From Rhodotorula mucilaginosa (lineage: Eukaryota > Basidiomycota > Microbotryomycetes > Sporidiobolales > Sporidiobolaceae): a DNA stretch of 64,000 nt. Within the stretch, counting starts at the first letter, position 1; every line of letters begins with the position of its first letter. The stretch is from the NCBI GenBank assembly GCA_034406715.1, contig CP137868.1, positions 496,001 through 560,000 of the forward strand. The letters are read 5' to 3'. Of the stretch, positions 37,620 through 41,999 are shown piece after piece. The notes beneath the pieces are model-generated. The model had not been told where the DNA came from. It searched no databases and worked only from the letters and a program-made list of their open reading frames with translations. The position numbers and the translations under genes are program-made.

Positions 37620-39512
37620 ATGGCGATGGCAGCAGAGCACGCCGTCACTTCAGCCCTGGCTACGTCCCTGCCTCACTCGGTGGGGCCGGAGGCCGCGGCC
37701 AAGCCGCCTCGCGCGCCGTTGCGCATGCGCCACCCGGACATGACCAACATGCCCGACTCGAGCGACTCGGACCACGATGCGTCCGACTCGGAAGGCGAGA
37801 CGACTGCCGTTGACGATGGCACGTACAACGACGACAACTACGTCCGCAAGGTCCTCGCCAAGGAGAAGCCGTTGCCGCCCATCACGCTCGGCAACCTTTA
37901 CAAGAACATCAACGTCATCTCGACCCTCGCCTTGACCGTCGTTCCCGCTCTGGCCATCTACGGTGCCTTTACGACACCCGTCATGTGGCAGACCGCGCTG
38001 TGGGCCGTCGCGTACTACTTCTACACCGGACTGGGTGAGTTTCGGTTGCCGCGTTGAGATCGTGTTGGGGCTCCTCGTGCTGACCTTTTCTCGCCACCCC
38101 GCAGGTATAACAGCAGGGTACCACAGGCTGTGCGTAGCGCCTAATTTCACCCTGTTACGACCTCTAGTCGTCGAGAACGAGCGATTTTAGTTTCGGAAGC
38201 TGACCGTTCCTTCCTCCCCCCTCTTTTCTCTCTTGCAGGTGGGCCCACCGCGCCTACACCGCCTCCCTGCCGCTGCAGTACTTCCTCGCTCTCGGAGGAA
38301 GTGGTGCCGTCGAAGGTTCCATCAGTAAGTGGCGTGTATTTGACCCCGACGCCACCCGGACCTCCATTGACTCCGACGTCTTTCTTACCCGCAGAGTGGT
38401 GGTCCCGTGGTCACCGTGCTCACCACCGTTACACCGACACCGACCTCGACCCGTACTCGGCCTCGAAGGGTTTCTGGTGGGCGCACGTCGGCTGGATGAT
38501 CGTCAAGCCTCGTCGCCGCCCCGGTGTCGCGGACGTTAGCGACCTTTCCGTCAACCCGGTCGTCCAGTGGCAGCACCGCTGGTACCTGCCCTTGATCGTC
38601 GGCATGGGCTTCGTCTTCCCGACGGTCGTCGCCGGCCTCGGATGGGGCGACTGGCGCGGCGGCTTCTTCTTCGCCGGCGCCGCTCGCCTGCTCTTCGTCC
38701 ACCACTCGACCTTCTGCGTCAACTCGCTCGCTCATTGGCTCGGTGAGACACCGTTCGACGACAAGCATTCGCCGAAGGACCACTGGGTCACCGCGCTCGT
38801 CACCATCGGCGAGGGTTACCACAACTTCCACCACGAGTTCCCGCAAGACTACCGGAACGCGACCAAGTTCTACCAGTGGGACCCGACCAAGCTCTTCATT
38901 CGCACTGCGTCGTTGCTCGGCCTCGCCTCGCAGCTCAAGACGTTCCCGGACAACGAAATCCGCCGCGGCCAGTTCGCGATGAAGCTCAAGGCGATCTCGC
39001 GCCAAGCCGAAGAGATCCAGTGGCCGAAGGACTCGAACCACCTGCCCGTCCTTACGTGGGACGACTTTGAAGCCGAGTGCAAGACGCGGCAGTTGATGGT
39101 CATCGGCGGATTCATCCACGACGTGTCGACTTTTATCGACGAGCACCCGGGCGGCCGCGCCTTGATCAAGACTCGCCTCGGCCGCGACGCTACAACGGCG
39201 TTCTATGGCGGAGTTTACGACCATAGCAACGGGGCCAGCAACGTACTGAGTCGTTACCGCGTCGGCGTCATCTCGGGTGGGTACGAAGTCGAGCACATGA
39301 AGAAGTACAGCGGCCTCATCGACCAGCTCCGCGAATCCGGCGCGGACGGCTGCGCCGGCAAGTCGAACGACCTCTCGGCAGCGGTCAGCAAGCACGTCGT
39401 CATCAAGGGCGACCCGCAGCTCAAGGGCGCGCCGCTCGCATCGGTGGAACGCCCGCCGACCTTCCGGGACACTCGCCTAACGGGCGGTCTTGGTCACGCT
39501 CTGAAGGCTTGA
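37620..39512 (+). CDS. OLE1: Acyl-CoA delta-9 desaturase with C-terminal cytochrome b5 domain
   Basis: Four exons (37620-38034, 38105-38129, 38239-38324, 38395-39512) give 547 residues. It inserts the first double bond in palmitoyl- and stearoyl-CoA in the ER membrane. The three histidine boxes are present: HRLWAH (joined across the second intron), HRAHH, and HNFHH in GEGYHNFHHEFP. Hydrophobic spans (VISTLALTVVPALAIYGAF, WYLPLIVGMGFVFPTVVAG) flank them. The C-terminus carries a fused cytochrome b5 domain with heme ligands in DEHPGGRAL and YDHSNGA, as in yeast Ole1. An acidic N-terminal tail (MPDSSDSDHDASDSEGE) precedes the first span. A partial duplicate follows 1,582 nt downstream. Confidence 0.96.
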
Positions 39513-40378
39513 TGGAACTGAGGTTCCCACCTCTGTTTTGCCTCGTCTTCTAGTGCTGTGCGCCGCGTCGTCCCGCACGACTGTCGCCATCGTCGTTCCT
39601 CCGCTTGTCTGTGTCGTTGTCCATCGCCGTTGTCTCTCTTCGTTTGCATCATCATTTCCCCCCGCGTCATTCTTCGCCGTCGTCGTCGTTCATACGTTAC
39701 CCCTCGTCTGTGGTTGTTTCCCGCTTTCGGTCACCTCCGCCTCTTGGACCATGTTCATCTTTCCGGGCCATGTTCATCTTTTTTCCGGGTCTCGCTCGCC
39801 TCACCAGTCGCATACAGTCTTACACACCCCGTACACACATCATAACGAACTCCTTCCTAGTCTCTCCAGACATGTCGCTCCTTTCTCCTCGTGACTCGGC
39901 GCAGTCTAGATCTGTGCCGATTCGCCTCCTTCCACCTTCCGCTGTAGCCAATACCTTCTTTGCGTCCTGTTTTGCGGAATGCGAGGCCCTAAAAGATACC
40001 TTTCCTGTTCATGTCTTATCAAGAGTGTTGTGCGCCATTTCCGCGATTGTTACTTGGACAGAGGCTCTCTTTTCCGCCACCCATGACACTTTTCTTTCCT
40101 TCACCTTGTCCAGCAGCGGAGCGGGAATTGGGAAGAGCCAAGCGCCTAAAGTCGAGGACCTATCAAGGTAGGTCTGGGTTGATACGGCGACTTCCTGCCG
40201 TCCGGTGCTGTCCGTTCCGAGGCAAACCGAACTCACGATTCTCGAAACTGCCAGAGTGCAGCAATTGCGCAGCAGCGTTGCGAGCAGAAGCAGCTTATCC
40301 AAAGCTTCATGCTCACAGTGAGAAGCTGTTGCACGCAATATACTGTTTCAAACACCGAGGAACCGCTGGAGCACCGCC
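39513..40378. other. Interval between OLE1 and its partial copy, 866 nt
   Basis: The first part is a T/C-rich 3' region of OLE1. The last part (from about 40250) may still hold very decayed homology to the middle of OLE1, but it is too weak to delimit by eye. No gene seen. Confidence 0.45.
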
Positions 40379-41020
40379 CTTGTCAACGTCGGCGAGGGTG
40401 ATCGCATCTTCCGCCTCGAGTTTCCGCAAAACTACCGGATGCGACAAAGGTCTCCCAGCGAGACCCTGCAAAGCTCTTCATTCGCACTGCGTCGCTGCTC
40501 GGTCTCGCCTCGCAGCTCAAGACGTTCCCGGACAACGAGATCCGCCGCGGCCAGTTTACGATGAAGCTCAAGGCGATCTCGCGCCAGGCCGAGGAGATCC
40601 AGTGGCCAAAGGACTCGAACCACCTGCCCGTCCTTACGTGGGACGACTTTGAAGCCGAGTGCAAGACGCGGCAGTTGATGATCATCGGCGGATTCGTCCA
40701 CGACGTTTCGACGTTCATCGACGAGCACCCGGGCGGCCGCGCCTTGATCAAGACTCGCCTCGGCCGCGACGCTACGACAGCGTTCTATGGCGGAGTTTAT
40801 GATCACTCCAACGGGGCCAGCAACGTACTGAGTCGTTACCGCGTCGGCGTCATCTCGGGAGGGTACGAAGTCGAGCACATGAAGAAGTACAGCGGCCTCA
40901 TCGACCAGCTCCGCGAATCCGGCGCGGACGGTTGCGCCGGCAAGTCGAACGACCTCTCGGCAGCGGTCAGCAAGCACGTCGTCATCAAGGGCGACCCGGA
41001 ACTCAAGAGCGCACTGTCGG
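40379..41020 (+). repeat. Partial tandem duplicate of the OLE1 3' half
   Basis: Aligns in direct orientation with 38797-39438 at a nearly constant offset of 1,582 nt. The first 100 nt, which cover the third histidine box, are only about 70% identical and the box reads RIFRLEFP instead of HNFHHEFP. From about 40478 the identity jumps to about 95% (roughly 25 differences in 530 nt by my count, most of them silent) and stops abruptly at the last codons of the OLE1 homology. Confidence 0.92.
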
Positions 41021-41145
41021 CAGGTTCACAGGGCGCGATAAGTGGCACGGTGTTGTCCACCTTCTCATCTCGCCAGACTCCCTTACAATCTGTCTATCGT
41101 TCAGCTATTGTCGTTACCTTCCCCTTTCTCACAAACTATCTGTGA
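40561..41145 (+). CDS. Open cytochrome b5 reading frame in the OLE1 duplicate (gene or young pseudogene)
   Basis: From an ATG that corresponds to an internal Met of OLE1 (38979), the duplicate stays open for 194 codons. Residues 1-150 match the OLE1 C-terminus with only a handful of replacements; the cytochrome b5 domain is whole, with DEHPGGRAL and YDHSNGA supplying both heme ligands. The last 45 residues are new sequence (SAGSQGAISGTVLSTFSSR...) after homology ends. It has no desaturase histidine boxes, so it cannot desaturate. It could be a free cytochrome b5-like protein, a spliced alternative tail, or an untranscribed fragment kept similar by gene conversion. A hydrophobic C-terminal stretch (SAIVVTFPFLTNYL) might act as a weak membrane anchor. 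Whether it is expressed is unknown. Confidence 0.45.
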   Translation: MKLKAISRQAEEIQWPKDSNHLPVLTWDDFEAECKTRQLMIIGGFVHDVSTFIDEHPGGRALIKTRLGRDATTAFYGGVYDHSNGASNVLSRYRVGVISGGYEVEHMKKYSGLIDQLRESGADGCAGKSNDLSAAVSKHVVIKGDPELKSALSAGSQGAISGTVLSTFSSRQTPLQSVYRSAIVVTFPFLTNYL

Positions 41146-41999
41146 CAGTGTCGGCGGAAGCGTTCAACGGCGACTTCCGAGGATGAAGAGGGGAAAAGAG
41201 ACACGAAACGCCACCCCCGTCCTCAGCTTCTTGCGATCCCTTCCCGGGCTCCGGAGCACATCGCTACTACCTTTGTTTGTCTGATGTACTATATTCTTGC
41301 ATGGTCCTCTGCAAGTAACCGAGTTGATCGGGGTTAGAGCGTTGTTGCACTCCCGTCGAGAGTTCCAAAAAAGTTCCCACGACGGAAGAAAGGGTTTCTC
41401 TGCTTCGCGCCAGCTTTTGCCCTCACCCGAAAGCCTGCTCGAGAGTATGGGTGTCGAGCAGACCATACAGGGCGACTTCCGAGGCGAGAGAGCATCGTGG
41501 AAGAGAGAAAACCAAGGTCCCGACTCCACCGCATCTTCACCTTCGCGGGCGGATTCCTCGGCATGTTGTCTGGAATGCATGCCCGAGAAAGCACACATTA
41601 ACACGAAGTGATCATGCAAAGCGCGTACAGTCGAAGAGGCTTTGCCGCCGTCCGCAGCGCAGTGAGAGAGAGAGAGAGAGAAGAAGTCTTCCTCGAGTTC
41701 GACTGCGACAAGGGCGCCAGGCACGAAGTGTCGAGTGACGCTCATCCCGACTATCTCGCCCACTTTGGGGTGCCCGGAATATAGACTGGTTGCAAGCCGA
41801 GAAACCTCATCGAGAGCACAACCTTTTGGTAGCTTTTCTCTCGCGGTTCGTGTTTCTCCTTCGGCTCGCGCATTCCATTCTTCCATCTTTGTGCAGCGAA
41901 GTAGACGTCTCACGCGGTGCAGAGCTCAGCGGACACAGGCCCAAGCCATGCTCTCGAAGAACAAGTTATTGAATCGAGACGGGACAAGTTTTGATTACA
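41146..41999. other. Intergenic, 854 nt
   Basis: Convergent region between the OLE1 duplicate and PRP6. It holds a GA microsatellite at 41664-41682. A 249-codon minus-strand frame (41164-41913) covers most of it but has no family motif and I do not call it. Confidence 0.45.
41664..41682. repeat. (GA)n microsatellite
   Basis: GA dinucleotide run of about nine units in the convergent intergenic region before PRP6. Confidence 0.85.

What the first reader, a model, noticed from the sequence alone, without database searches (positions are those of the whole stretch)
40379..41145. OLE1 half-copy: dead desaturase end, pristine cytochrome b5 end
A direct partial duplicate lies 1,582 nt downstream of the same bases in OLE1. 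Its first 100 nt are about 70% identical and have lost the third histidine box, but the following 530 nt are about 95% identical, with roughly 19 of 25 changes silent, and open from an ATG for 194 codons with both heme ligands. The sharp step in identity needs a cause: gene conversion from OLE1, or selection for a free cytochrome b5 protein made from a desaturase tail. The latter would be a new b5 gene born by fission of a fused domain.
Basis: partly seen in the sequence, partly recalled or inferred. Interest (0 to 1): 0.75.

Follow-up and report, generated by a model that had tools for sequence, protein, structure and literature searches.

The report
Spare cytochrome b5 end of OLE1
Next to its main fatty-acid desaturase gene, this red yeast carries a copy of only the gene's back half; the enzyme part of the copy is dead, but its electron-carrier (cytochrome b5) part has kept its protein sequence in a way that looks like selection, so it may be a small stand-alone gene that still needs testing.

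Summary
OLE1 38772-39430 recurs at 40355-41012 with 52 differences in 659 columns, a 1-nt deletion included. The third histidine box is destroyed; the b5 part is open and keeps both haem-ligand histidines. Simple neutral drift does not fit. The first 37 codons look neutral (17 amino-acid-changing, 8 silent); the next 180 do not (7 and 18), and simulations with a neutral copy never gave so few changing differences (0 of 5400). The step at 40468 is in amino-acid-changing differences (0 of 2000 shuffles), not clearly in silent ones (440 of 2000). Two database proteins of unnamed origin (P0010, P0025) carry the copy's own downstream tail, so the copy seems to exist in other genomes. Best reading: a half-duplicate whose b5 part is under purifying selection, probably as a free b5 protein, perhaps also homogenised by OLE1. 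The kind is not wholly new: Rhodotorula toruloides has OLE2, a transcribed OLE1-related part gene whose deletion lowers 16:1 (PMC7977280). Species here is probably R. mucilaginosa (recalled). No transcript evidence was available, and conversion from a divergent OLE1 allele is not excluded.

The parts
37620..39512 (+). OLE1, the parent gene: 4-exon model 37620-38034, 38105-38129, 38239-38324, 38395-39512; 547 aa, three histidine boxes and a C-terminal b5 domain
   Evidence: splice model (splice sites chosen by eye); 92.5% identical over 547 aa to R. pacifica P0128
38772..39430 (+). stretch of the last OLE1 exon that was copied
40355..41012 (+). half-copy of OLE1
40355..40470 (+). dead desaturase end: His box 3 lost, 1-nt deletion at about 40439; neutral-looking (17 amino-acid-changing, 8 silent differences in 37 codons; the codon with the deletion left out)
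40471..41012 (+). constrained part (180 codons, dN 0.017, dS 0.16)
40561..41145 (+). 194-codon reading frame with a b5 domain; the same frame is open upstream to 40402
   Evidence: Pfam PF00173 62.2 bits against cut-off 23.7
40639..40854 (+). cytochrome b5 domain (residues 27-98)
   Evidence: model residues 1-100 with block-mean pLDDT 78-95; Foldseek rank 1 rat cytochrome b5 1icc
40726..40728 (+). first haem-ligand His (HPGG), residue 56
   Evidence: His in 88 of 89 homologues with a residue there
40804..40806 (+). second haem-ligand His, residue 82
   Evidence: His in 89 of 89 homologues with a residue there
41011..41145 (+). tail of the frame, 44 codons and stop, not from OLE1; similar translated sequence follows OLE1-derived sequence in P0010 and P0025
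40318..40458 (+). hypothetical intron (GTGAGA...CCCAG) that would join an upstream ATG at 40309 to the constrained frame, giving 231 aa and stop; no branch-point consensus found, speculative

Best explanation
The 3' half of OLE1 was copied about 1.6 kb downstream. The piece of desaturase in it lost the third histidine box and decayed. The cytochrome b5 piece stayed under purifying selection and most likely encodes a free, anchorless b5 protein of about 194 residues (or somewhat longer at the N-terminus). Inferred: it takes electrons from cytochrome b5 reductase and passes them to desaturases that lack a fused b5, or competes with or supplements Ole1's own b5 end. Repeated conversion by OLE1 may also have kept it similar. 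Shown: the anatomy, the uniqueness in this genome, the excess of silent over amino-acid-changing differences. Supported but not proved: the copy's presence in other genomes. Inferred: transcription, translation, haem binding and partner.
For: Amino-acid-changing differences: 17 per 86.8 sites left, 7 per 415.7 right (Fisher 3e-9); silent: 8 per 24.2 against 18 per 124.3 (p 0.039, split chosen after the fact). Two of the 7 come from one serine-to-serine codon switch, so 5 residues differ. Changing:silent 17:8 left against 7:18 right, Fisher p 0.010. Neutral-copy simulations, 9 settings of 600 runs: 0 of 5400 as low as observed; a copy omega of 0.1-0.25 fits. At the 5 changed residues of the right part OLE1 has the state seen in most of 12 related Ole1s: all 12 at three sites, 10 of 12 at Q517, 7 of 12 at G520. 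Both haem ligands kept; b5 fold predicted. GC3 of the copy held in the right part (0.85 against 0.86 in OLE1) and fell in the left (0.76 against 0.95). P0010 carries the copy's tail and a b5 core equal to this OLE1 at 95 of 95 residues, to this copy at 93, although its tail has diverged by about 0.45 per site.
Against: No transcript or protein data. Constraint appears to start at about 40471, 90 nt before the ATG, so the gene start is unknown. The tail is not conserved in frame: P0010 lacks the stretch after the b5 core, and both tail matches that reach past 41142 cross a stop in the window. P0025 begins after the b5 core, so it does not show an intact core. No membrane anchor (highest 19-residue Kyte-Doolittle mean 0.84), unlike microsomal b5. 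The equal-mutation-rate assumption matters: conversion from a divergent OLE1 allele, or a several-fold higher mutation rate in OLE1, could mimic the excess of silent changes. A free b5-like gene exists elsewhere (contig C3). The published OLE1 response element has no match upstream of the copy; the nearest, with 3 mismatches, is at 41915, and chance gives as many in the window.
Confidence: 0.5

Rival explanations
1. A dead relic kept similar only by gene conversion from OLE1. The b5 half was overwritten by OLE1 after the copy arose; the left end and the downstream flank were not.
For: The left part has higher silent divergence (0.44 against 0.16), and the tail divergence between genomes exceeds the OLE1-copy silent divergence. 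A 190-nt stretch (40809-40998) holds only 2 differences; 148 of 5000 shuffles reach that. A donor allele from a divergent lineage would bring mostly silent differences.
Against: After a simple conversion a neutral copy should show about 14-17 amino-acid-changing differences of 25; 7 are seen (0 of 5400). A silent-only scan has no significant step (440 of 2000). The patch test is mixed: with at most 0, 1 or 3 differences allowed 2771, 559 and 539 of 5000 shuffles reach the observed length, and with third positions only and 2 allowed 1225 of 5000.
Confidence: 0.3
2. It is this species' counterpart of R. toruloides OLE2 and acts as a regulator of Ole1, through RNA or a short spliced protein, rather than as a b5 electron carrier.
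For: OLE2 is also an OLE1-related partial sequence on the OLE1 scaffold, transcribed, fatty-acid responsive, and its deletion lowers 16:1 by 46.5% (PMC7977280). The first 240 aligned columns here hold 34 differences (86% identity, bins), the figure reported for the 240 nt of OLE2; this may be coincidence.
Against: The region credited in OLE2 (third histidine box) is the part that is destroyed and frameshifted here; the constrained part here is the b5 domain. OLE2 lies about 13 kb from OLE1 in ATCC 10657, this copy 0.84 kb after the OLE1 stop. The OLE2 sequence itself was not retrieved, so orthology is untested.
Confidence: 0.15
3. Assembly artefact: a false duplicate of OLE1.
For: The two copies share exact runs of up to 72 nt, the kind of repeat that breaks assemblies.
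Against: 52 differences, a 1-nt deletion among them, and unique flanks; two separate records carry the copy's tail joined to OLE1-derived sequence.
Confidence: 0.02

Closest known systems
OLE2 of Rhodotorula toruloides (PMC7977280; XP_016270986 as its NP11 best hit)
   Same: OLE1-derived partial sequence linked to OLE1 in a red yeast, including sequence around the third histidine box
   Different: OLE2 is described as 149 aa in 5 predicted exons with 240 nt at 86% identity, about 13 kb from OLE1, and no b5 domain is mentioned in its section; here 659 columns align, the histidine box is dead, and the b5 domain is the constrained part
Fused C-terminal cytochrome b5 domain of fungal Ole1-type delta-9 desaturases
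   Same: Direct parent; same b5 sequence and haem ligands
   Different: Here detached from any catalytic domain
Free cytochrome b5 proteins (CYB5; PF00173)
   Same: Stand-alone b5 domain with both histidine ligands and the predicted b5 fold
   Different: Closest to the desaturase tail, not to CYB5; no C-terminal membrane anchor found
JCM3770_005559 of Rhodotorula araucariae (P0012)
   Different: Keeps the normal Ole1 C-terminus, has an unrelated N-terminus, and lacks the first 20 positions of the Pfam b5 profile; may be a separate event or a gene-prediction artefact

Membership tests
Cytochrome b5 domain (PF00173) | Score over the curated Pfam cut-off | tested here: met
   62.2 bits against 23.7
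Cytochrome b5 domain (PF00173) | Two axial haem-ligand histidines | tested here: met
   His56 (HPGG) and His82, conserved in 88 of 89 and 89 of 89 homologues with a residue there; that these are the ligand positions is established knowledge of b5
Cytochrome b5 domain (PF00173) | b5 fold | tested here: met
   model with a 90-row alignment, block-mean pLDDT 78-95 over residues 1-100; 45 PDB matches at E up to 0.001, rank 1 rat cytochrome b5. A first model with 24 rows was poor, mean pLDDT 43.6
Cytochrome b5 domain (PF00173) | Binds haem and carries electrons | not testable with these tools
   needs protein
Microsomal (tail-anchored) cytochrome b5 | C-terminal membrane anchor | tested here: not met
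   highest 19-residue Kyte-Doolittle mean 0.84
Fungal Ole1-type delta-9 desaturase | Three histidine boxes for the di-iron site | tested here: not met
   boxes 1 and 2 not copied; box 3 HNFHH reads R-I-F-R-L
R. toruloides OLE2 | OLE1-related partial sequence linked to OLE1 | tested here: met
   0.84 kb after the OLE1 stop, only such place found in the genome
R. toruloides OLE2 | Sequence orthology to XP_016270986 | not tested
R. toruloides OLE2 | Transcribed, fatty-acid regulated, deletion lowers 16:1 | not testable with these tools
   reported for R. toruloides (PMC7977280 section 12)
Neutral pseudogene | Amino-acid-changing and silent changes in neutral proportion | tested here: not met
   right part 7:18, 0 of 5400 neutral runs as low; left part 17:8 fits neutrality (binomial p 0.54 against 0.6)
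Gene-conversion tract | Silent divergence drops at the tract edge | tested here: inconclusive
   post hoc Fisher p 0.039; scan 440 of 2000 with the best split elsewhere

The most novel reading that the evidence does not exclude
Rhodotorula yeasts have released the cytochrome b5 end of their fused desaturase as a separate selected gene: in this species the desaturase end is dead and the b5 end is a free electron carrier, kept in step with the parent by selection and conversion. OLE2 of R. toruloides and the R. araucariae part protein would be further cases of the same birth route.
Probability: 0.3. Interest if true: 0.7.

Novelty: new variant of a known kind. Interest (0 to 1): 0.5.

Why it matters
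Fused desaturase-b5 enzymes are, as I recall, usually discussed as products of fusion; a clear reverse step, with the cast-off domain kept under selection beside its parent, would be a tractable example of gene birth by fission. It would also suggest a different explanation for the OLE2 deletion phenotype in an oil-producing yeast (extra electron supply rather than histidine-box regulation), which a simple knock-out and a ligand mutant can test.

Tried and rejected
Simple conversion followed by neutral drift as the cause of the step: rejected under equal rates, but a divergent donor allele remains open. Tandem duplication of a larger unit: no residual similarity between the OLE1 3' flank and the copy's 3' flank (100 of 150 shuffles score at least as high), the same without the OLE1 coding end (98 of 150), or between the 5' flanks (103 of 150). 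Published OLE1 response element: 5 matches with up to 3 mismatches in the window against 8.58 expected by chance, none upstream of OLE1 or of the copy. RNA structure in the tail: less stable than most shuffles (95 of 100 fold at least as well). First structure model on a 24-row alignment: poor; repeated with 90 rows, the window frame and 89 homologues that I chose from the 158 returned. R. toruloides as the species: rejected, because the PAL exon differs clearly from the PAL of 1y2m and 1t6j, which I recall to be R. toruloides (one search prints no organism), and Ole1 is 77.5% identical to a R. toruloides Ole1. The 177-aa protein hits (for example P0001, P0004, P0009) were judged to be last-exon pieces of ordinary OLE1 genes, since OLE1 here would give the same length from the internal ATG; this is inference. 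Search for more copies of the tail: all 158 proteins held were compared with 41013-41330; P0010 and P0025 stand out (E 5e-10 and 3e-14), and 8 other proteins gave weak matches of 21-34 residues, the best P0107 (E 4e-5), whose b5 sequence is unlike OLE1 here; these were not counted. Literature: 10 searches; no title or abstract start in their listings speaks of a free b5 gene derived from a desaturase tail, within that library only. Papers seen: PMC7977280 passages and section 12, not its supplement or figures; PMC12840915 passages; PMC12014800 passages; all others as search listings only. Mitchell and Martin 1995 was seen only as a citation.

Full report
WHAT IS THERE. The window holds an intact OLE1 gene at 37620-39512 (4-exon model, 547 aa, three histidine boxes and a C-terminal cytochrome b5 domain). 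Its last-exon stretch 38772-39430 recurs at 40355-41012, on the same strand, starting 0.84 kb after the OLE1 stop codon. There are 52 differences in 659 columns, one of them a 1-nt deletion. In the 20.35 Mb genome (19 contigs) only OLE1 and this copy match the query DNA; with the Ole1 protein at E up to 10, five of six listed places lie in OLE1 or the copy and the sixth is a weak b5-domain match on contig C10.

SPECIES. The genome's PAL exon is clearly different from the solved PAL of 1y2m and 1t6j, which I recall to be R. toruloides, and matches, as I recall it, the PAL of Rhodotorula mucilaginosa; this identification rests on recall. Ole1 is 92.5% identical to R. pacifica and 77.5% to R. toruloides.

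THE STEP. Change-point analysis puts the step at 40472, with 27 of 117 against 25 of 542 differences (0 of 2000 shuffles). Splitting the differences by type shows what the step is made of. By Nei-Gojobori counts the left 37 codons (the codon with the deletion left out) have 17 amino-acid-changing and 8 silent differences (dN 0.23, dS 0.44); the right 180 codons have 7 and 18 (dN 0.017, dS 0.16). Two of those 7 belong to one serine-to-serine codon switch, so 5 residues differ. Bootstrap ranges are dS 0.16-0.96 left and 0.09-0.25 right, dN 0.13-0.34 left and 0.005-0.034 right. A scan of amino-acid-changing differences alone finds the step at 40468 (0 of 2000 shuffles); a scan of silent differences alone finds none that is significant (440 of 2000, best at 40804). 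A plain comparison of silent sites at the chosen split gives p 0.039. So the step is mainly one in protein constraint. The left part behaves as a dead sequence should (17 of 25, binomial p 0.54 against 0.6); the right does not (p 0.0012).

NEUTRALITY TEST. Starting from a converted copy and letting OLE1 evolve under constraint (omega 0.02, 0.1, 0.2) and the copy neutrally (kappa 1, 2, 4), 25 differences should include about 14-17 amino-acid-changing ones; none of 5400 runs gave as few as the 7 observed. A copy omega of 0.1-0.25 fits; 0.5 gave 0.7-9% at kappa 2. At the five changed residues of the right part OLE1 has the state of most of 12 related Ole1 proteins: all 12 at three sites, 10 of 12 at Q517, and 7 of 12 at G520, where three outgroups share the copy's S. 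The test assumes equal mutation rates in the two copies and a donor equal to the resident OLE1. If the donor had been a divergent OLE1 allele, the silent differences could be differences between alleles; I could not test this because no DNA of other strains was available.

OTHER GENOMES. Two proteins of unnamed origin carry the tail that follows the copy, not the tail of OLE1. P0010 (238 aa) matches window 41016-41312 in frame 3 across one stop (E 7e-7), and P0025 (143 aa) matches 41035-41142 and, across one stop, 41079-41240 (E 4e-7 and 4e-11). Of all 158 proteins held, these two stand out for the tail. They are best read as orthologues of the copy. Simulated translation identity puts tail divergence at about 0.45 per site for P0010 and 0.2-0.33 for P0025. 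P0010's b5 core is identical to this OLE1 at 95 of 95 residues and to this copy at 93. A neutral copy that old should have lost that identity, so selection or recent conversion acts there too. Because these divergences exceed the OLE1-copy silent divergence here (0.16), homogenisation by OLE1 is plausible; slower silent change in OLE1 through codon preference is an alternative. Against a conserved full-length product, P0010 lacks the stretch after the b5 core, and P0025 begins after the core and so says nothing about it.

WHAT IT WOULD DO. The 194-codon frame has a Pfam b5 domain at 62.2 bits (cut-off 23.7), both haem-ligand histidines, and a model with block-mean pLDDT 78-95 over residues 1-100 whose top PDB match is rat cytochrome b5; beyond residue 100 the block means fall to 45-65. 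No membrane anchor is evident. The inferred role is a soluble b5 electron carrier. PMC7977280 notes that of three R. toruloides desaturases only Ole1 has a fused b5 and suggests that Fad2 and Fad4 rely on a free partner. This genome also has a free b5-like gene on contig C3, so the copy would be an addition, not the only source. Constraint seems to begin 90 nt before the ATG at 40561; an upstream exon is possible (one enumerated join gives about 231 aa) but unproven.

COMPARISON WITH WHAT IS KNOWN. R. toruloides OLE2 is an OLE1-related sequence (240 nt, 86% identity, 149 aa predicted, about 13 kb from OLE1), abundantly transcribed; deletion lowers 16:1 by 46.5% and raises 16:0 by 16% (PMC7977280). 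Its authors credit the region around the third histidine box. In the present copy that region is destroyed and frameshifted while the b5 part is constrained, so their mechanism cannot hold here unchanged. Its NP11 best-hit accession is the number next to that of OLE1, which hints at close linkage; I did not retrieve the sequence.

VERDICT. A real half-duplicate, with reasonable evidence that its b5 part is under purifying selection, and no evidence yet that it is expressed. It belongs beside OLE2 as a known sort of OLE1 relative in red yeasts; the b5-only reading was not met in the searches made.

Noticed in passing
   Followed up: partly
window 40809-40998: Within the constrained part a 190-nt stretch has only 2 differences from OLE1 (148 of 5000 shuffles), which might mark a more recent conversion patch; tests with other settings were weaker.
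   Followed up: partly
P0010 (238 aa): Another genome's version of the copy runs straight from the b5 core into the downstream tail, lacking the stretch that follows the core here.
   Followed up: partly
G000 contig C3:272934-273227, - strand: A free cytochrome b5-like gene, apparently in two exons.
   Followed up: no
window 40011-40652, + strand: A 213-codon ATG frame overlaps the start of the copy in another frame; no evidence that it is a gene.
   Followed up: no
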